Shown: piece by piece, positions 3,796-34,047 of the stretch | Position numbering within the stretch: position 1 is the first letter of the stretch | How the letters are laid out: every line of letters begins with the position of its first letter | Source of the DNA: Actinomycetota bacterium | GTDB taxonomy: Bacteria; Actinomycetota; Thermoleophilia; Solirubrobacterales; JACPNS01 | Direction: 5' to 3' | DNA length: 34,208 nt | NCBI GenBank assembly: GCA_016219715.1 | Contig: JACRKX010000025.1 | Span: forward strand, 1 to 34,208 | Notes under the pieces: generated by a model | What the model was told of the DNA's origin: nothing | The model's database searches: none | What the model saw: the letters and a program-made list of their open reading frames with translations, nothing else | Translations under genes and position numbers: made by a program

Positions 3796-4638
3796 TCAGG
3801 ATTTCGCGCCGCGCGAGCCGGCGGCGCGGCGGCGCGTCTCGCGCAGCGTCTGGCGGTGGAGCCGGTACGACAGCGACGGCGAGAGACGCTCCAGCCACCA
3901 GCCGACCCGCCCGTAGAACGGCGTTACGACCAGCCGCTTGCGGGCCGCGACTCCGTTGAGCAGCCGCCGCACGGCCTTGTCGGTGGCCAGCGGCTTGATC
4001 GGCACCAGCTTGCGGGCGTCGGTGCCCTCCAGCGACCCGCGCAGGGTGTTGTTGGTGAACATCCCCGACTGCACGAAGGCGGGGCAGAAGAGTGTGAGAT
4101 GTACGCCGTGCTCGGCCGCTTCGAGTTCGAGCGTGTTGTGCAGGCCGACCAATGCGTGCTTGGTCGCGCAGTAGTGCGCCTGAAGCGGTACCGGCACCAG
4201 TCCAGCCACCGAGGCCGTGGTGACGATCTGGCCGCCGCCCTGCGTGACCATCTGGTCGTAGGCGAGCTTCGTGCCGTAGGCCACGCCGCGCAGGTTGACG
4301 TCGATGATCTTGTCCCAGTCGTCGAGTGTGACCAGCTCGAACTCGCCGAAGATCGCGACGCCGGCGTTGTTGAACATCAGGTCGAGCCGGCCGTGCTCGG
4401 CCACGACCGCGTCGATTGCCGCCCGCAGGTCTTCACGCCTCGCCACGTCAACTCGCATTGCCGTGGCTTTGCCCCCGGCGCCCGCGATCTCGGCGACGAC
4501 GCCGTCGATCCCTTCGACGACGTCTGTCACCCACACGTGCGCCCCGGCCGCCGCCAGCTGCAGCGCGCTCTCGCGCCCGATGCCGCTGGCCGCGCCGGTG
4601 ACGATCGCGGACTTGCCGTTGAAGACTTCAACCCCCAT
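3796..4638 (-). CDS. Short-chain dehydrogenase/reductase (SDR)
   Basis: A 280-residue classical SDR with a Rossmann fold. The cofactor motif TGAASGIG is near residue 16, the structural NNAG motif near residue 90, the catalytic serine is in TTASVAG, and the YxxxK motif is YCATK near residue 155. A C-terminal extension of about 30 residues is Arg-rich and may contact the membrane or a partner. Asp in the segment VTDVVEG at the end of strand 2 would favour NAD(H), but this is tentative. The substrate is unknown. On the minus strand TAGACT (4655–4650) lies 11 nt before the ATG, suggesting a near-leaderless message. The gene converges on the exonuclease across the inverted repeat. Confidence 0.9.
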   Translation of the reverse strand: MGVEVFNGKSAIVTGAASGIGRESALQLAAAGAHVWVTDVVEGIDGVVAEIAGAGGKATAMRVDVARREDLRAAIDAVVAEHGRLDLMFNNAGVAIFGEFELVTLDDWDKIIDVNLRGVAYGTKLAYDQMVTQGGGQIVTTASVAGLVPVPLQAHYCATKHALVGLHNTLELEAAEHGVHLTLFCPAFVQSGMFTNNTLRGSLEGTDARKLVPIKPLATDKAVRRLLNGVAARKRLVVTPFYGRVGWWLERLSPSLSYRLHRQTLRETRRRAAGSRGAKS

Positions 4639-12643: not shown

Positions 12644-15643
12644 TCAGTTCAGCCGCAAAGTGACCCTCCTCGACGAGCTGGCGGCGTGGTTCCATCCGTC
12701 CTCGGTCGGCGCGTAGACACGGAAGACGATGCGCGCCTTCACGCCCTTCGAGATCCGGTCGAACCTGTACTTGACAGCGAAGTTGCCGTTCGAGTCAGTG
12801 TGAGCGATTGCCACGGCGGGCCGCCACTTCTTGCCGGCGTAGAACTGCAGGGCGACGATCTTGCCAGCGGCGGGGATTACACCGTCGAACGACCGCACCG
12901 ATCCGCGGAAGGTCACGGTTTGCCCAGTTCTGGCATGGCGTGTCGACACGCGCAGCTTGAGCTTTGCCCCGGTTCCGAGCTGCACGGTCGCCGAGGTGTC
13001 CTGGTTGGTGTTGGTGCCGGGGTAGTAGACGCGGATCTGTCTGCTGACGCCGGGCCTGATCTTGAACACGTAGGAGCCGTCGGTGCGCGTTGAGGTCGTG
13101 CCCAGAAGTTGTTCGCTTCCGCCCTTGACACGCGCGTAGATCTCGATTGGCTGACGGGCGAGGCGGGTCAGCGTGTTGGTGGTCAGGAAGCCCTGCGCGA
13201 CCGCGCCGCGCTTATAGCCGACCGAAAGAGTCGGGTAGGTGCCGGTGAAGACGACCTTGCCGCGGGACCGTTTGACGCATTTGGGGCCGCGCTTCTTCTT
13301 GCAGGTTCTCTTGGCCTTTGAGAGTCCGGCCGAGAGGGCGACGCCGTCGCGCATCGGATTCTCGAAGGTGAAGGTGTTGCCGTTCTCGTCTTTGGATGTG
13401 ACGAGTTCGTTTCCGGCCTGGTCGTAGGCGCGGACACGGGCGACGTAGGTGCCCTGCGGTAGCGACGTGTCCGGGAAGACCGCAGACGCGACCGCTGAGG
13501 TTGGGTAACCGCCGACGGGGTTGCCTGAGAGATCCGCGAGCGAGGTTGGAAGGAGCTGCCAGTCGCCTTCGCCCTGCTTGCTGACTTCGATCGTGCTCAG
13601 TGCGATGCCCGAGACGCTGTCGCCGATCGGCGCACGAAGCAGTCGCGGATTGCTTGACGAGCGCGCGGTGAAATGGCCGGTGGGATCGGATGCGTCAATT
13701 CCGAAGTTGACGACCTTCGCGGCCGCCTTGTTGCCGGCGAGGTCGACCGGTGAGAGGCGTAGTTCTTTGGAACCTTCGCCGGAAATACTGATCATTGTGT
13801 CGGAGCCCCGGGGCACGTTGGTCGCGTCTGGGCCGACGCCGTCGATCGAATAATCGAGGTATGCACCGTCCGCGAATTCGTTTGTGGCGCTAGGGGCCAT
13901 CCCAGAGAGAGCGTCGGTGCCGTGAAGGCCGACCAGCTGACCGTCCTTATACCAACGACCGTTCTCGATGCCCGAGATAGTTCCGGTGGGATCAGTCAGG
14001 TCAACCTTCGCCTCAACGTTTTCGGTCGCCGACGAAGCCAACCCCGCGCAAGTCACCGCCCTCAGGTGAATCCAGTGGTTGTCCTCGGACAGGTTCGCCG
14101 GAAGTCGCCACTTGCGCACATTGCCGGGGATGTTGATTGTCGTTCCTGGGTTGTCGATCTGGCTAAGGCTGATCGATCCGGCGAAACCACATATCGGAGC
14201 GAAAGAGCCAGGCAGTGCGGTGAAGTCCCACTCCTGGTCGTAGCCGTTCGCGAGGTCCAACCGGCTAATCCACCCATTCGCCTGCCCCTGCGGCGCCGCA
14301 GGCGGAGTCGGGTCGTAACCAATCTCGTGGTCTGAATCCGCGCCACCGCCAGACCCATCTCCGATAGCACTCTCATTCCCGGCTTTGTCGATAACCGAAA
14401 GGCGAAGCCTCCACTGTCCGGCCGCGGGAACGGTAAGGCCGCTGATCGATGAGCGGGTAGCGGCGATGCCTGAGACCGTGCCCCCTACGGGGATCGTGAC
14501 GGCGGCGGGATTCGACTGACTCCCGGCGTCAACTGGCTCGACGTCGACCTTCACCTGATCGATGCCCGAGTGCGTCTCGTCTTCGAGCTCCTCGGTGTCG
14601 TTCGCCCACGTCACGTCGAAGTCGTTGGTCGCGCTCCAGCCTTGCTGCGTGCCAGCGATGGCTATGTTGCTCGGCGTGCTCGGACCAGTGTTGTCGACGT
14701 AGAACGAGACCGTGTTCGTGTGTTGATTGCCGGCGGCGTCAGTGGCGCGCACCGTGTAGGCGTGCGGGCCGTCGCCGGAGTTCGCGGAGATCACATTCGT
14801 GTTGACCGAACCGAAGTTGTCGTACTTCGTGCTCGGGCAGGGTTGCCAGTTGACGTAGTTGCACCCGGAATTGAGCGTCGTGACGATCGGCTCGAGTGTG
14901 GTGTCGCCGTCGGCGTAGGACTCGACCTGCTTGATGCCGCCCTGTGCGTCGGCGCCGCCGACATACGTAGTCCTAGTGCCGCTATTCCAGGCGCGACCGA
15001 CCGGCTGGTTGTAGGAAGTCTTGAGTGTGCCGCTGTAGGGCGGAAGAGCTCCGGGGGCGACCAGGTCTTCGACGGTGAAGATCATCGAGCCGAATCCGAG
15101 ATGGCCGAGAACGCCGGTGCCTTGGTAGTTGCCGCTGGCGGTCACGACGTTGAACATGTAGCGATTGCACGTGTAGGACGTATACAGGCAAGCGACGTTC
15201 GTCTCAATCGTCTGCCCGGCGGTGTCGAACGCTGGGAGGGTGGTGCTCGTCGTGCAGATTCCGTTCCATACCGGCAGCCCGTCGATACAGGTACGAATGG
15301 CGTTCGTGGTCGAGCCGCCGCCGACGGATCCGTTGACCTTGAGGTTGAGGTTCGAGAACTTCAGACCGCTCGGCAGAGAGGGGGTCGACCACCACATGTA
15401 CTGGCCGCCGCCGGCGACGCCGGTCGCTGTCAGCCCGAACATGCTGTTGAAACAGGAGGCGACCCCGCCAGTGAATCCGTTTGCCCCCGCCGCCCAACCG
15501 GGAGCGCTTGCGTCTCCGTAGGACGGGTGGCACTGGTAGACGTTGTAGGAGCCTGCGCTGGCCGGGGCGGCCATCGCCGCGAGCAGCACAAGGCATGCCA
15601 GCGCAGAGAGGAGCTGTGCCCTGAGGCCGAATCGAATGGTCAT
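12644..15643 (-). CDS. Large secreted Ig-like surface protein
   Basis: A 999-residue protein with a clear signal peptide (MTIRFGLRAQLLSALAC… ending in ASA at about residue 30). The first 200 residues contain several Cys and look like a lectin-like or concanavalin-like beta-sandwich (SYNVYQCHPSYGDAS…). Repeated Ig-like modules follow, marked by VRATDAAGNQH, SVIDKAGNESA, SPVDLAGNKAA and VRAYDQAGNEL. The end is two basic beta-sandwich modules rich in Lys and Arg. No catalytic motif is visible, so an adhesive or structural role at the cell surface is likely. ATG 15643 is chosen because the signal peptide begins there and AAGGA lies 12 nt upstream. It follows the sigma-factor gene by 37 bp, so the two are probably one operon ending at the terminator at 12518–12549. 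Confidence 0.82.
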   Translation of the reverse strand: MTIRFGLRAQLLSALACLVLLAAMAAPASAGSYNVYQCHPSYGDASAPGWAAGANGFTGGVASCFNSMFGLTATGVAGGGQYMWWSTPSLPSGLKFSNLNLKVNGSVGGGSTTNAIRTCIDGLPVWNGICTTSTTLPAFDTAGQTIETNVACLYTSYTCNRYMFNVVTASGNYQGTGVLGHLGFGSMIFTVEDLVAPGALPPYSGTLKTSYNQPVGRAWNSGTRTTYVGGADAQGGIKQVESYADGDTTLEPIVTTLNSGCNYVNWQPCPSTKYDNFGSVNTNVISANSGDGPHAYTVRATDAAGNQHTNTVSFYVDNTGPSTPSNIAIAGTQQGWSATNDFDVTWANDTEELEDETHSGIDQVKVDVEPVDAGSQSNPAAVTIPVGGTVSGIAATRSSISGLTVPAAGQWRLRLSVIDKAGNESAIGDGSGGGADSDHEIGYDPTPPAAPQGQANGWISRLDLANGYDQEWDFTALPGSFAPICGFAGSISLSQIDNPGTTINIPGNVRKWRLPANLSEDNHWIHLRAVTCAGLASSATENVEAKVDLTDPTGTISGIENGRWYKDGQLVGLHGTDALSGMAPSATNEFADGAYLDYSIDGVGPDATNVPRGSDTMISISGEGSKELRLSPVDLAGNKAAAKVVNFGIDASDPTGHFTARSSSNPRLLRAPIGDSVSGIALSTIEVSKQGEGDWQLLPTSLADLSGNPVGGYPTSAVASAVFPDTSLPQGTYVARVRAYDQAGNELVTSKDENGNTFTFENPMRDGVALSAGLSKAKRTCKKKRGPKCVKRSRGKVVFTGTYPTLSVGYKRGAVAQGFLTTNTLTRLARQPIEIYARVKGGSEQLLGTTSTRTDGSYVFKIRPGVSRQIRVYYPGTNTNQDTSATVQLGTGAKLKLRVSTRHARTGQTVTFRGSVRSFDGVIPAAGKIVALQFYAGKKWRPAVAIAHTDSNGNFAVKYRFDRISKGVKARIVFRVYAPTEDGWNHAASSSRRVTLRLN

Positions 15644-18914: not shown

Positions 18915-19220
18915 ATGGCTGACGCAAAAGCAAATCAACGGCCCGGTCCGGCCGCGAACGGAGTTATGACCGCCGAGCAGGTGGCCGCGCGAGCGGGCGT
19001 GTCCGTGGGCACGATCAAGCGCTGGGTCAAGGCCGGCGCGATCCCCAACTTCAACGGCGAATGGACAGCGGCGTCGGCCGCGCACGCGCGCATCGTCTCG
19101 CAGCTACGCCGTAACGGCCAGCCGCTCGAAGACATCGTCGCCGCCGCCAAAGACGGCCGCCTCGCGCTGGGCTCCGCCGACTCGCTCTTCCAGAACGAAG
19201 GGGTGCGCTGCTGCAGGTGA
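18915..19220 (+). CDS. MerR-like helix-turn-helix protein, probable N-terminal part of the cyclase
   Basis: A 101-residue protein with a MerR-type HTH at about residues 18–45 (MTAEQVAARAGVSVGTIKRWVKAGAIP). A helical stretch follows (HARIVSQLRRNGQPLEDIVAAAKDGRLALG), ending …SADSLFQNEGVRCCR. AGAGG about 8 nt upstream supports ATG 18915. Its stop overlaps the cyclase GTG start by 4 nt (GTGA at 19217–19220). In related actinobacterial proteins that I know, this HTH plus 'GRLALG…LF' segment is the N-terminus of a single cyclase polypeptide. The break could therefore be real translational coupling or the result of a deletion with a frame change near 19195–19210. The Cys-Cys-Arg tail looks out of frame. 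Confidence 0.7.
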   Translation: MADAKANQRPGPAANGVMTAEQVAARAGVSVGTIKRWVKAGAIPNFNGEWTAASAAHARIVSQLRRNGQPLEDIVAAAKDGRLALGSADSLFQNEGVRCCR

Positions 19221-19966
19221 TCCGCGTGGCCTCGAAGTCGTTCAGCGACCTCGCCGACGCCGAGGCGCGGCTGATCCGTCTCTTCGTACACGAGCCGCTG
19301 CTGCAGGCCGGCGCCGGGGGCGCCGAGATCTCCGAGGTGATGGGCAAGCTCGTCGAGACATCGCTGCCGCACATGACTCCGATGTTCGAGTACATGCACT
19401 CGCGCTTCCTTCAGCAGTTCGCCGAGCAGATCCAGATCGAGAACGTTCAGACCGGCGCCGTCAGCAGCACGCGCGGTCACCTCGACGTGGCAATCTGCTT
19501 CGTCGACATCTCCGGCTTCACGCGCTACACGGAAGAGGCCGGCGTGGAGAAGGCCTTCGAGCAGGCTGACCAGCTCAGGCAGGACATCCAGACCACGCTG
19601 CCCGACAGCGCCCGCATGATCAAACTCACCGGCGACGGCGCGATGATCGTCGGCAGCGAGGCGGCCGAGCTGGCGCGCTGGGCCGCCGACTTCGCCAACC
19701 GCCCCGACAAGATCTTCCGGCTGCGCATCGGCATGGACTTCGGCGAGGCGCTCTACCGCGACGGCGACTACTTCGGCGGCGCCGTCAACATGGCCGCCCG
19801 CGTGCTCAACCGCGCCGACGCCGAAGAGGCGCTGGCAACCGAGTCGCTGAAGAACCAGATCAAGAACCGCGCCGCCGCCGGCCTACGTTTCCAGTCGATC
19901 GGCAAGGTTCGGCTGAAGGGCTTCGACGATCCCGTCGAGCTCTATCGCATCGAGCCACGCGGTTAG
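19217..19966 (+). CDS. Class III adenylate/guanylate cyclase
   Basis: A 249-residue protein. Residues about 1–85 are a helical regulatory region (SDLADAEARLIRLFVHEPLL…), and about 88–245 form a class III cyclase catalytic domain. Metal-binding aspartates are in CFVDISGFT and KLTGDGAMIVG, and transition-state Asn and Arg are in AVNMAARV, so it should be active. YFGGAVN and the C-terminal GKVRLKGFDDPVELY are typical. The product, cAMP or cGMP, cannot be told with certainty. The conserved region already begins before the GTG start (in-frame codons upstream read ALLQ), which suggests that the natural N-terminus lies in the HTH gene. It converges on the third subtilase; the two stop codons share TTAG at 19963–19966. 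Confidence 0.88.
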   Translation: MIRVASKSFSDLADAEARLIRLFVHEPLLQAGAGGAEISEVMGKLVETSLPHMTPMFEYMHSRFLQQFAEQIQIENVQTGAVSSTRGHLDVAICFVDISGFTRYTEEAGVEKAFEQADQLRQDIQTTLPDSARMIKLTGDGAMIVGSEAAELARWAADFANRPDKIFRLRIGMDFGEALYRDGDYFGGAVNMAARVLNRADAEEALATESLKNQIKNRAAAGLRFQSIGKVRLKGFDDPVELYRIEPRG

Positions 19967-21675: not shown

Positions 21676-23067
21676 ATGGATTTACCCGATTTAGAGAATT
21701 CGATCCGTGAGCAGGCTCTGCTGTCCCATGGCAGGCGAACGCTCGTAATGCTCAGCGGCGGCGGCGACTCGGTCGCGCTGCTGGCGCTCGCGAAATCGGT
21801 GTGCGGCCCCGACTCGGTGGTCGCGCTGCACGTCAACTACGGGCTGCGCGGCGAGGATTCGGCGGCCGACCAGCGTCACTGCGAGCAGCTCTGCGAAGAA
21901 CTCGGCGTGACGCTTCAAGTCGAGCGGGCCACGTTGCCGGAGTCCGGAAACCTGCAGGAACTCGCGCGCGACGAGCGCTACCGGCTGGCTGAGGTCGCCG
22001 CGCGCCGCCACAACTGCGAGACGATCGCCGTTGCGCACAACGCCGACGACCGCGCCGAGACGATTCTCTACCGCCTCGCCGCCTCTCCGGGCCGCCGTGC
22101 ACTGCTGGGCATGCCGCGCAGCCGCGGCAACGTCGTGCGGCCGTTGCTCGACTTCACGCGCGAGGAGCTGCGTGAGTGGTGCGCCGGTCAAGGACTCGCC
22201 TGGCGCGAGGACGCGACCAACGCCGACCCGCGCTTTGCCCGTACCCACGCGCGCGCCGCGCTGGCCGAGCTGCGCGAGCTGCACCCGGTCGCGATCGACA
22301 ACATTTTGCGCACGGCCGATGAACTGGCCGTCGAGAACGAGGCGCTTGGCGAGATCGTCGACGGACTGCTGGCCGGCGCGCTGGCCGAAGGCGGCGACCG
22401 GCTGCCAGCCACGGCGCTTGACGGGATGGCGCCGCCGCTGGCTGCCCTGGTACTGCGCGAGTTCGTCGAGCAGGCGACCGGAGCGCCAGCCCCTGCGGCC
22501 CGTGGCGCGCTGGAACGCGTGCTTGGGGCCGCGCAGTCCGGCGGCAGCCGCACGATCGAGATCGAGGGCGCGAAGCTGCTCGTCGAGTACGGCGTGATTT
22601 CGGTGGCCGCATCCGATCGAGACGAGCCACCGGCTCCGCCACCGGAGCCGGCCTCGTTGAGCCTGCCTGGAGAGGTCGTCTTCGGTGAGTGGCGAATCGC
22701 GGCGGCCACTGTCGACGCCACCACCGAGCCCGGGGCACACCACATGCTGTTGACCGGTGAGCGGGCCACAGCGCCTCTACTGGTGCGCCCGCGCCGTCCC
22801 GGCGATCGCATGCGACCGCGCGGACTGGGCGGCAGCAAGTCGCTGCAGGACCTGATGGTCGACCGCAAGATCCCGCGCGCGCAGCGCGACTCGCTGCCGG
22901 TCGACCGCAAGATCCCGCGCGCGCAGCGCGACTCGCTGCCCGTAGTCTGCGCCGGTGACGAGATCGTCTGGGTGCCGGGTCTGGCCAAGGGTGAGCTGGC
23001 GCCGCTGCCCAGGCACGCCGCCACGTCGTCCGAGCTGGCAGTGCTGCTTACGGCCAAGCCCGTCTGA
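21676..23067 (+). CDS. tilS: tRNA(Ile)-lysidine synthase, with an internal 14-residue duplication
   Basis: TilS attaches lysine to the C34 wobble base of tRNA-Ile(CAU) using ATP, so the tRNA reads AUA. The PP-loop motif SGGGDS is at residues 27–32, followed by HVNYGLRGEDSAAD and AHNADDRAETILYRL. The middle has the LRPL-like VVRPLLDFTREELR segment, and the C-terminal domain has RPRRPGDRMRP and SLQDLMVDRKIPRAQRDSLPV. The last block is doubled in frame: residues 395–408 and 409–422 both read VDRKIPRAQRDSLP. ATG 21676 gives 463 residues; an in-frame ATG at 21628 would add 16. It is followed by hpt, a common pairing in bacteria. The duplication lies in the tRNA-binding C-terminal domain and could lower activity. 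Confidence 0.93.
   Translation: MDLPDLENSIREQALLSHGRRTLVMLSGGGDSVALLALAKSVCGPDSVVALHVNYGLRGEDSAADQRHCEQLCEELGVTLQVERATLPESGNLQELARDERYRLAEVAARRHNCETIAVAHNADDRAETILYRLAASPGRRALLGMPRSRGNVVRPLLDFTREELREWCAGQGLAWREDATNADPRFARTHARAALAELRELHPVAIDNILRTADELAVENEALGEIVDGLLAGALAEGGDRLPATALDGMAPPLAALVLREFVEQATGAPAPAARGALERVLGAAQSGGSRTIEIEGAKLLVEYGVISVAASDRDEPPAPPPEPASLSLPGEVVFGEWRIAAATVDATTEPGAHHMLLTGERATAPLLVRPRRPGDRMRPRGLGGSKSLQDLMVDRKIPRAQRDSLPVDRKIPRAQRDSLPVVCAGDEIVWVPGLAKGELAPLPRHAATSSELAVLLTAKPV
22857..22940 (+). repeat. Perfect 42-bp tandem duplication inside tilS
   Basis: Bases 22857–22898 and 22899–22940 are identical over 42 nt, and the flanking bases differ on both sides. It keeps the reading frame and inserts 14 residues. 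Identity at every third position implies a very recent event or an assembly error. Confidence 0.95.
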
Positions 23068-28186: not shown

Positions 28187-28671
28187 GCACCGCCTATCTC
28201 GGCCTCGGCAGCAACGTCGGCGACCGGGCAGCGAACCTGCGGGCCGCGGCCGAAGCGCTCGAGGCCAACGGAGTCGAGGTCGTTGCGCGCGCTTCGCTGT
28301 ACGAAACCGCGCCTCAGGGCGAGGTGCTCGACCAGCCGGACTTTCTGAACTCGGCGCTGCGCATACGCACTGGGCTTGCGCCGCTGGAGCTGCTCGATCT
28401 CTGCAAGCGCATCGAGCGCGAACTCGGACGCGATCCGTCCGGCAGGCGGCACGGCCCTCGCCCGATCGACATCGATGTGCTGCTCGTCGGCGACCGAACC
28501 CTGGCGCATGAGCGGCTCACGCTGCCTCACCCCGAGATCGCTTCGCGCCGCTTCGTGCTCGAGCCGTTGCTCGAGCTGGACCCCGACCTCACGCTGCCCG
28601 GCGGCACGCACGCAGCCCGACTGGCCAGCGCGGTGCGCGATCAGCCTGTCACGCGCCTGGGCGACTTCTAG
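28183..28671 (+). CDS. folK: 2-amino-4-hydroxy-6-hydroxymethyldihydropteridine pyrophosphokinase
   Basis: FolK transfers pyrophosphate from ATP to hydroxymethyl-dihydropterin, the step between FolB and FolP. The 162-residue protein shows AYLGLGSNVGDRAANLRAA at the start, the pterin loop SLYETAPQG, DFLNSALRIRT, and the catalytic segment RRHGPRPIDIDVLLVGD with the two metal-binding Asp residues, then LPHPEIASRRFVLEPL. The GTG start at 28183 overlaps the folB stop (GTGA), and GGAAGGAG lies immediately upstream, so translational coupling is likely. A GTG at 28171 in the same frame is an alternative. It converges on the GST-like gene with only 9 bp between stops. Confidence 0.96.
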   Translation: MSTAYLGLGSNVGDRAANLRAAAEALEANGVEVVARASLYETAPQGEVLDQPDFLNSALRIRTGLAPLELLDLCKRIERELGRDPSGRRHGPRPIDIDVLLVGDRTLAHERLTLPHPEIASRRFVLEPLLELDPDLTLPGGTHAARLASAVRDQPVTRLGDF

Positions 28672-31112: not shown

Positions 31113-32183
31113 ATGCCCACCACAGTGGATGCCAAAACCGAGTCCTACAACTACCCTGAGTGCCCGATGGAACGACTGCACGAGAGCTTCGAAATCGGCG
31201 GTGTGACCGCCGCGAACCGCCTGCTATTGGCGCCTTTGGCCGGTATCGGCAACTGGTTCGTGCGCCTTCAGGCCAAGCGTTACGGGGCCGGTCTGACTGT
31301 CTCGGAGATGGTCTCCAGCCACGGACTCGCGTACGGCGACAAGCGCACGCGCACCGAGTTCCTGCGACTGCACCCCGACGAGGGGCCGACCAGCATTCAG
31401 TTGTTCGGCGCCGATCCGGCGATCATGCGCGAGGCGGCGGCGATCGTCGCCGAGAGCGGCGCCTCGATCATCGATCTGAACATGGGCTGTCCCGTCAAGA
31501 AGGTCTGCCGCACCGGTGCGGGCTCGGCGATGTTGCGCGATCCCGACACGGCGGTCGCGGTCGCGGCGGCCGCTCGCGAGGGTGGCGGTCTGCCGGTCAC
31601 CGTGAAACTGCGTCCGGGCAACAAGCCCGGCGAGCGTGAGGGTGTCGAGCTGGCCCATCGCCTGGTGACCGAGGCCGGTGTGTCGGGCATCGCCTTTCAC
31701 CCGCGCCATGCCAGCCAGCAGCACAAGGGTCTTCCCGACTACGAGCTGGCCCGCGAGGTTGTTGAATCACTGCCGGTGCCGGTGATCCTGAGCGGAGGCA
31801 TGATCGGCCCAAAGAAGGTTCGCCGGGTCTTTGAAGAGACTGGCGCCGCGGCGATCATGCTGGCGCGCGGCTCGCTGGGCAACCCGTGGATGTTCGAGCG
31901 TGTGCTCGGCACGCGCGGCTTCGAAGACCTGCCCACGCCGGCCGAGGTCGCCGACGAACTCAACTGGGTGATCGACCGTGCCGCGGAGCACTACGAAGAC
32001 AACCGCGCGGCTCGCTACCTGCGCAAGTTCTACCCGTGGTATCTCGAGCGGCTCAAGCAGTACGACGGCGAGCAGTTCACCCGTGCGTGCCTCAACGAAA
32101 TCAACCAGGCGCTACAGCAGACCGACACTCTCGACCAGGCCCGAACGGTGCTTGCTTCGGTCGCCGTGCCGGTTGGCGCCTGA
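31113..32183 (+). CDS. dusB: tRNA-dihydrouridine synthase
   Basis: This FMN enzyme reduces uridine to dihydrouridine in tRNA. It has 356 residues from ATG 31113. Landmarks are NRLLLAPLAGIGNWFVRLQAKRYG, SIQLFGADPAIMREAA, NMGCPVKKVCRTGAGSAML with the catalytic Cys, VTVKLRPGNK, IAFHPRHASQQHKG, VILSGGMIG and IMLARGSLGNPWMF. Its start is uncertain: GTG 31095, ATG 31113 and ATG 31167 (just before ERLHESFEIGGV, where similarity begins) are all in frame. TTGAAC (31068–31073) and TAGGTG (31092–31097) with an 18-bp gap form a plausible promoter, which would exclude 31095. The subclass is most like DusB by context with greA and lysS, but the subtype is not proven. Confidence 0.93.
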   Translation: MPTTVDAKTESYNYPECPMERLHESFEIGGVTAANRLLLAPLAGIGNWFVRLQAKRYGAGLTVSEMVSSHGLAYGDKRTRTEFLRLHPDEGPTSIQLFGADPAIMREAAAIVAESGASIIDLNMGCPVKKVCRTGAGSAMLRDPDTAVAVAAAAREGGGLPVTVKLRPGNKPGEREGVELAHRLVTEAGVSGIAFHPRHASQQHKGLPDYELAREVVESLPVPVILSGGMIGPKKVRRVFEETGAAAIMLARGSLGNPWMFERVLGTRGFEDLPTPAEVADELNWVIDRAAEHYEDNRAARYLRKFYPWYLERLKQYDGEQFTRACLNEINQALQQTDTLDQARTVLASVAVPVGA

Positions 32184-32231
32184 CCTGAGCGCCGCTGCCG
32201 GCCCCGATCGGCTGGGAGCCGCCAGTCTCCC

Positions 32232-32240
32232 TGGTATATT
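32232..32240 (+). promoter_or_regulatory. Extended −10 promoter of greA
   Basis: TGG-TATATT (TATATT at 32235–32240) has the TGN extension of an extended −10 element and lies 11 nt before the greA ATG at 32252. No −35 match is seen. The predicted transcript would have a leader of only a few bases. Confidence 0.45.
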
Positions 32241-32251
32241 CCGCGCCCCGA

Positions 32252-32640
32252 ATGGCACGCGAAACCATCGTCAGCGCGACTTTGGCGACATCTCAGAGAA
32301 CGCCGAGTACGACGCCGCCAAGAACGAACAGGCGATGCTCGAGGCCCGTATCGCGCACCTCGAAGAGAAGCTGCGCTCCGCGTCGATCGTCGACGAAAAG
32401 AACATCGAGAAGGACATCGTCGGTGTCGGCACGACCGTGCACCTGAAGGACCAGAAGACAGACAAGTCCTCGAAGTTCAAGATCGTCGGCAGCTCCGAAG
32501 CCGACCCGGCCGCCGGAAAGCTCTCGAACGAGTCGCCGATCGGCAAGGCGCTGATCGGCCACAAGCGCAACGACGTCGTCAAGATCCCGGTGCCTCGCGG
32601 TCCGGCGCGCCAGCTGAAGATCACGAAGATCGAAGCGTAG
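32252..32640 (+). pseudogene. greA: Transcription elongation factor GreA, 5' part deleted and frameshifted
   Basis: GreA rescues backtracked RNA polymerase by stimulating transcript cleavage. A normal start is present: ATG 32252 reads MARETIV. But after about seven codons the sequence jumps, in a different frame, to DFGDISENAEYDAAKNEQAML, which is normally about residue 40. From there to the stop the protein is intact, including the tip of the coiled coil (GDISEN) and the FKBP-like C-terminal domain (VGSSEADPAAGKLSNESPIGKALIG). About 30 residues of the first coiled-coil helix are missing and the frame moves by one base. No good start codon exists in the downstream frame. As written the gene cannot make normal GreA. 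A sequence or assembly error is as likely as a true pseudogene. Confidence 0.82.
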
Positions 32641-32674
32641 GCATCGCCTCCGGCGATGTAATCTGCCGTCGCGT

Positions 32675-34047
32675 ATGAACGCCGACGACAATCCGACCGA
32701 CGCGCCAGTAGAGGGCCCCGCCGAGCACGAGCTGATCGCCGAGCGGCGCGCCAAGCTGCAGCGATTCCGCGATGCCGTCTCGCCGGCCGTCGCGGCCACG
32801 GCAAGGCAGCGTTCCTCGACATCGTCGACCGCAGCGGCAAGATGCAGGTTCACGCGCGCGAGGATCTGCTGGGCGAGGAGCAGTTCGAGTTGCTGACCTC
32901 GCTCGACCTCGGCGACCTGGTCGGCATCGACGGCACGGCATTCGTCACCAAGCGCGGCGAACTCTCGCTGGCGGCCACCGGCTGGACGCTGCTGGCCAAG
33001 AGCCTGCGACCGCCGCCCGACAAGCATCACGGCCTCGCCGACATCGAGACCCGCTACCGCCACCGCGAACTCGACCTGATCGCCAACGCGGAAGCGCGTG
33101 AGCTGTTCATGCTGCGCAGCCGCGTGATCGCGCTGGTCCGACGCTGGCTCGACGACAGGGGCTTCATCGAAGTCGAGACCCCTGTGTTGCAGCCGATCTA
33201 CGGCGGCGCCCTGGCGCGGCCGTTCGTCACTCACCACAACCAGCTCGACCGCGACTTCTTCCTGCGCATCGCCACCGAGCTGTACCTCAAGCGCCTGATC
33301 GTCGGCGGCCTCGAGAAGGTCTACGAGCTGGGCAAGGACTTCCGCAACGAGGGCGTCAGCCACAAGCACAACCCAGAGTTCACGATGATCGAGTGGTACG
33401 AGGCCTACGCCGACTACGAAAAGGTGATGGACGACCTCGAGACGCTGGTCAGCTGGCTGGCCGATGAGGTCGGCTACGACGGCGAGCTCGACTTCAGCGC
33501 GCCGTGGCCGCGCATACCGCTGGCCGAGGTGATCGAGCAGCAGACCGGCATCGACGTGCTCGCGCACCGCGACCGAGACGATCTCTTCGCGCAGATGCGC
33601 GACAAGGGTTTCATGGAGGTCGACGCCGGCGATAGCTGGCCGCAGCTCGTCGACGATCTGCTCTCTAAGCACGTCGAACCCAAGTTGAAGAACCCGACCT
33701 TCATCATCGACTACCCGGTCGAGCTCTCGCCATTCGCCAAGGCGCATCGCGCGAAGGAGGGCATCGTCGAGCGCTTCGAGTGCTTCGCGGCGGGCATGGA
33801 GTTCAGCAACGCCTTCACCGAGCTAAACGACCCGGACGTTCAGCGTGAGCGCTTCGCCGCTCAGACCCGCCTGGCGGCCGAAGGGGACGAAGAGACCCAG
33901 CCCCACGACGAAGACTTTCTGCAGGCGCTCGAATACGGCATGCCGCCGACCGGCGGCATCGGCATCGGCATCGACCGCCTGGTGATGCTGCTCTCCGGCG
34001 CGCACGCGATCCGCGAGGTCGTGCTGTTCCCGGCGATGCGCGACTGA
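32675..34047 (+). pseudogene. lysS: Lysyl-tRNA synthetase (class II), internal deletion and frameshift near the 5' end
   Basis: LysRS charges tRNA-Lys. ATG 32675 begins a normal N-terminus (HELIAERRAKLQRFRDA, to about 32776). The frame then changes, and the protein resumes at GRRGHGKAAFLDIVDRSGKMQ from 32785 onward in a frame shifted by one base. About 40 residues of the OB-fold tRNA-binding domain are missing. The rest is complete: YGGALARPF, motif 2 FRNEGVSHKHNPEFTMIEWYEAY, and motif 3 GGIGIGIDRLVMLL. An ATG at 32842 could start a shortened protein without most of the OB fold. TAATCT (32659–32664) lies 10 nt before ATG 32675. LysRS is essential, so unless another copy exists, a sequence error is the likelier cause. 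Confidence 0.88.

What the first reader, a model, noticed from the sequence alone, without database searches (positions are those of the whole stretch)
32252..32300. greA keeps its start but has lost about 30 codons and its frame
MARETIV from ATG 32252 is followed, one frame away, by DFGDISENAEYD. In GreA proteins about 40 residues separate the start Met from GDxxEN; here only about 11 do. The extended −10 and start codon are intact, so this is a lesion rather than a misread start. The missing part is the first helix of the coiled coil that enters the RNA polymerase secondary channel.
Basis: partly seen in the sequence, partly recalled or inferred. Interest (0 to 1): 0.6.

Follow-up and report, generated by a model that had tools for sequence, protein, structure and literature searches.

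The report
greA gap, probably an assembly error
The greA gene in this uncultured actinobacterium really is printed with 88 bases missing and out of frame, but the neighbouring, indispensable lysine-tRNA synthetase gene and several other genes of the same draft genome show the same kind of cut, so the gap is most likely a fault of the assembly and not a change in the organism.

Summary
From ATG 32252 only 26 nt precede the codons for DFGDISENAEYD, against 114 nt in four related genes (L042, G002, G003, G004). The gap is therefore exactly 88 nt (not 94 or 97) and breaks the frame. Start codon and -10 element are conserved in relatives. The first coiled-coil helix is lost; acidic tip and C-terminal domain remain. 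The reading as a genetic lesion is doubtful. In the same window lysS, 35 nt after greA and the only lysyl-tRNA synthetase found in the bin, lacks 118 nt, and a MerR/cyclase gene lacks 172 nt, both out of frame. Elsewhere in the bin der is cut and joined to an ABC ATPase gene (217 nt gone), a methyltransferase lacks 77 nt and a gene on C20 about 59 nt. One gene-by-gene test finds four frame-breaking gaps of 50 nt or more in 228 comparisons against this genome and none in 582 against two related genomes. The rest of greA and lysS shows ordinary purifying selection. Best reading: local mis-assembly of a draft MAG. A second, intact GreA gene exists on contig C57. Low interest; raw reads would settle it.

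The parts
32233..32240 (+). -10-like element (TATATT, in an extended TGnTATATT setting) of greA, about 12-16 nt before the ATG; conserved TATA(T/C)T at about the same distance in four relatives
   Evidence: promoter role inferred
32252..32273 (+). 5' end of greA, codons 1-7 (MARETIV) plus one base; still in the native start frame
32273..32275 (+). junction: 88 nt present in all relatives are absent here (codons about 8-37 of GreA)
32278..32640 (+). rest of greA (DFGDISENAEYD ... KITKIEA, stop), intact but out of frame with the start
32675..32776 (+). 5' end of lysS (34 codons) in native frame
32774..32777 (+). junction in lysS: 118 nt absent relative to G002 and L042; GCCG matches both flanks
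32776..34047 (+). rest of lysS, out of frame with its start; only LysRS found in the bin
18948..19202 (+). N-terminal MerR-type HTH part of a HTH/cyclase gene
19199..19202 (+). junction in the HTH/cyclase gene: 172 nt absent relative to G002, G003 and G004
19202..19960 (+). C-terminal part of that gene with guanylate/adenylate cyclase domain, one frame away

Best explanation
The 88-nt gap in greA is most likely a local assembly error of a draft metagenome-assembled genome (the window is a whole contig, C124, of a 125-contig, 86%-complete bin). In the living organism greA is most likely full length and makes an ordinary GreA that enters the RNA polymerase secondary channel and stimulates transcript cleavage. 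Shown: the gap, its size, its absence in relatives, and further gaps of the same kind in this assembly, including in the only lysS found and in der. Inferred: that the missing bases exist in the organism. The exact fault (bad gap closing, joining of contig ends, or chimeric reads in low-coverage places) is not determined.
For: Three frame-breaking gaps lie in this one 34-kb contig: greA 88 nt, lysS 118 nt, HTH/cyclase 172 nt. More lie elsewhere in the bin: 217 nt joining der in frame to an ABC ATPase gene on C57, 77 nt in a methyltransferase on C15, about 59 nt in a gene on C20. Gene-by-gene test: 4 distinct frame-breaking gaps of 50 nt or more in 228 gene comparisons with this genome as subject, 0 in 582 with G002 or G003 as subject. 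DNA test: gaps in this genome only, none in either direction between G002 and G003 over 197 kb aligned. lysS is the only LysRS found: no class I LysRS above cut-off, and the other class II hit is aspS; LysRS and Der are indispensable in known bacteria (established knowledge). The missing pieces of greA and lysS are nowhere else in the bin. The remaining greA and lysS codons show dN/dS like that of intact pairs (greA: window-L042 0.08, window-G002 0.12, L042-G002 0.11) and no further stop or indel. Private perfect tandem duplications (42 nt in tilS, 72 nt on C57) also occur, reminiscent of the unmerged overlaps described for MAG scaffolds in PMC7111523.
Against: No reads or second assembly of this species could be examined. 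Junctions show 0-4 nt of shared sequence, which is also what real illegitimate deletions leave. Most genes in the sampled 467 kb look intact, so the faults are scattered or clustered. The bin is incomplete, so a second lysS could exist outside it. The 42- and 72-nt duplications are multiples of three and could be real.
Confidence: 0.83

Rival explanations
1. A real, recent frame-breaking deletion has inactivated greA; the second GreA (C57) covers for it.
For: A full-length second GreA (156 aa, both Pfam domains, GDLKENAEY tip) is in the bin, as in the other genomes of the genus. GreA loss is tolerated in many bacteria (own knowledge). Short junction homology is typical of illegitimate deletion.
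Against: The same type of damage hits lysS and der, which are not dispensable, in the same assembly. No sign of relaxed selection in the remaining gene. The other members of the genus keep this greA (in G001 split over two contigs).
Confidence: 0.1
2. The lineage is undergoing genome-wide decay by small deletions, greA and lysS included, with lysine charging supplied by a copy missing from the bin.
For: Several private deletions of 59-217 nt across the bin; bin only 86% complete.
Against: Decay by deletions alone, with no point stops and with dN/dS as in intact relatives, is unlikely; bin size 2.2 Mb is like that of its relatives (2.4-2.6 Mb).
Confidence: 0.04
3. A working short Gre-like protein is made, by an internal start or by programmed frameshifting at the junction.
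For: The rest of the reading frame is open to the normal stop.
Against: Either product would lack helix 1 of the coiled coil; Gre activity depends on the coiled-coil domain and its tip (PMC3132773). Relatives have one continuous frame. The same would have to hold for lysS and the cyclase gene.
Confidence: 0.02
4. The first reader mistook the start, and the gene starts elsewhere in frame with DFGD.
For: An open frame runs from 31978 to 32640.
Against: That frame crosses dusB out of its frame; the MARETIV start and the -10 element match relatives.
Confidence: 0.01

Closest known systems
Transcription elongation factor GreA (TIGR01462, PF03449 + PF01272; E. coli GreA 1GRJ)
   Same: C-terminal domain and helix 2 with the acidic tip GDISENAEYD match GreA models above cut-off; genus orthologues lie in the same dusB-greA-lysS order
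   Different: codons about 8-37 (helix 1) and the frame are missing in this sequence only
Local assembly errors of MAGs as described in Chen et al. 2020 (PMC7111523)
   Same: wrong consensus inside protein genes of a draft bin; duplicated contig-end sequence
   Different: read support could not be inspected here, so the cause is not proven
Ordinary bacterial pseudogene by deletion
   Same: intact start and promoter-like element, lost frame
   Different: the same damage also hits the sole lysS and der; no decay of the remaining codons

Membership tests
GreA (TIGR01462 / PF03449+PF01272) | C-terminal GreA/GreB domain | tested here: met
   PF01272 87.3 bits, positions 3-76 of 77
GreA (TIGR01462 / PF03449+PF01272) | complete N-terminal coiled coil (two helices) | tested here: not met
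   PF03449 matched only from position 32-36 to 71; helix 1 absent
GreA (TIGR01462 / PF03449+PF01272) | acidic tip residues (GDxxEN) | tested here: met
   GDISEN at the start of the downstream frame
GreA (TIGR01462 / PF03449+PF01272) | one continuous reading frame from the start codon | tested here: not met
   88-nt gap, 88 mod 3 = 1
GreA (TIGR01462 / PF03449+PF01272) | transcript-cleavage stimulation | not testable with these tools
   needs biochemistry
Local assembly error | gaps private to this assembly and spread over unrelated, also essential, genes | tested here: met
Local assembly error | lack of read support at the junction | not testable with these tools
   no reads available
Real pseudogene | relaxed selection or further lesions in the remainder | tested here: not met
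   dN/dS unchanged, no stops; a very recent event would also look so

The most novel reading that the evidence does not exclude
The deletions are real: a living Thermoleophilia lineage carries frame-breaking deletions in greA and in its lysS, and has replaced or bypassed these functions.
Probability: 0.05. Interest if true: 0.6.

Novelty: not a real feature. Interest (0 to 1): 0.1.

Why it matters
Mainly as a warning: this bin carries silent gaps of 59-217 nt, without Ns, inside genes, so pseudogene, gene-fusion (Der-ABC ATPase) or gene-loss claims from it need read support. If real, loss of one GreA paralogue would be a modest result; loss of the sole lysS would be remarkable.

Tried and rejected
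Considered that the missing pieces sit elsewhere in the bin: not found. Considered that the gaps mark removed runs of N: the only N runs in the sampled bin are whole masked contigs, so this could not be shown. Considered that deleted stretches are sequence shared between co-occurring species (assembly-graph branch points): true for greA between G001 and G003 (59 nt identical; G001 contigs C45 and C145 end and start inside greA with exactly 55 nt overlap), but apart from 29 nt for lysS in G003 the other gaps show no such sharing, so it is not a general cause. A 112-nt gap at 28187 versus G003 lies where G004 also differs from G003, hence natural variation. A 136-nt gap on C16 is intergenic and weakly aligned, set aside. 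Small +1/-1 frame differences were not used. The first protein-level control was confused by shadow frames and was replaced. Rfam scan of the window gave no match.

Full report
Observation. The window has ATG at 32252 followed by MARETIV, and DFGDISENAEYD is read from 32278 in another frame. In four related genes (L042, G002, G003, G004) the distance from ATG to the D of DFGD/DFGE is 114 nt; here it is 26 nt. The gap is thus 88 nt, 29 codons and one base, and the frame is lost. The ATG, the residues around it and a TATA(T/C)T element just upstream are conserved in the relatives. The rest of the gene is a normal GreA: NCBIfam GreA models above cut-off and Pfam PF01272 complete, PF03449 only from position 32-36 of 71. 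Compared with E. coli GreA (1GRJ) the missing part is helix 1 of the coiled coil, while the acidic tip and helix 2 remain.

Surroundings. The order dusB-greA-lysS is kept in relatives. lysS begins at 32675, 35 nt after greA. Its first 34 codons match relatives, then 118 nt are missing at 32774-32777 and the frame is lost. A third case lies at 19199-19202, where a gene with a MerR-type HTH and a cyclase domain lacks 172 nt relative to three relatives. All three gaps are private to this genome among those compared.

Is lysS dispensable here? Only two class II synthetase hits of this Pfam family are in the bin: this lysS and aspS on C72. No class I lysyl-tRNA synthetase reaches cut-off. The missing lysS and greA pieces are not elsewhere in the bin. 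A living cell needs a lysyl-tRNA synthetase (established knowledge), so either the sequence is wrong or another copy is outside the 86%-complete bin.

How common is it in this assembly? I took 467 kb of the bin and samples of G002, G003 and G004. Chained DNA alignments show further gaps only in this bin: 217 nt on C57, which removes the end of der and the start of the next ABC ATPase gene and joins them into one 818-codon frame, and 77 nt in a methyltransferase gene on C15. Between G002 and G003, 197 kb aligned, no such gap was found in either direction. A gene-by-gene test found four distinct frame-breaking gaps of 50 nt or more in 228 gene comparisons against this bin (118, 172, 77, 59 nt) and none in 582 comparisons against G002 or G003. 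That test misses greA itself because its 5' piece is too short, and G002-G003 is a more divergent pair than G000-G002, so sensitivities are not identical.

Signs of decay. The remaining codons of greA and lysS evolve like those of intact relatives: dN/dS about 0.08-0.12 for greA against the two closest relatives, 0.11 between these two. There is no extra stop or indel. A real lesion would have to be very recent, and so would all the others.

Conclusion. The most economical reading is local mis-assembly, at about 0.83. Such errors in metagenome-assembled genomes, and the resulting wrong protein sequences, are described in PMC7111523. Which fault produced them is open. The greA stretch is a plausible trouble spot: in the related bin G001 two contigs end and begin within greA, overlapping by exactly 55 nt, but the other gaps show little or no shared sequence of that kind. 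A real greA deletion, backed by the second, full-length GreA on C57, keeps about 0.1.

Noticed in passing
window 32675-34047: lysS, the only lysyl-tRNA synthetase found in the bin, lacks 118 nt after codon 34 and is out of frame.
   Followed up: yes
window 18948-19960: MerR-type HTH plus cyclase-domain gene lacks 172 nt relative to three relatives and is out of frame.
   Followed up: yes
window 22857-22940: Perfect adjacent 42-nt duplication (14 codons, VDRKIPRAQRDSLP twice) in the TilS C-terminal domain; G002 has one copy. Real or an unmerged overlap.
   Followed up: partly
L131 (G000:C57) about 4199-4215: 217-nt gap joins der (EngA) in frame to the next ABC ATPase gene, giving an 818-codon frame that looks like a fusion protein.
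   Followed up: yes
L131 (G000:C57) 14075-14218: Perfect adjacent 72-nt duplication absent from G002.
   Followed up: partly
window 32233-32252 and 32655-32675: greA and lysS both have a conserved -10-like element about 12-16 nt before the ATG in relatives, leaving little room for a Shine-Dalgarno leader, which suggests nearly leaderless mRNAs in this group.
   Followed up: no
L042: Contig with greA 92% identical to this one is filed in a Xanthobacteraceae MAG (JAUSIF010000161.1); it looks like a misbinned Thermoleophilia contig.
   Followed up: no
L167 end / L040 start (G001:C45 and C145): Two contigs of a related MAG end and begin inside greA with an exact 55-nt overlap, i.e. an assembly break at the same gene.
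   Followed up: partly
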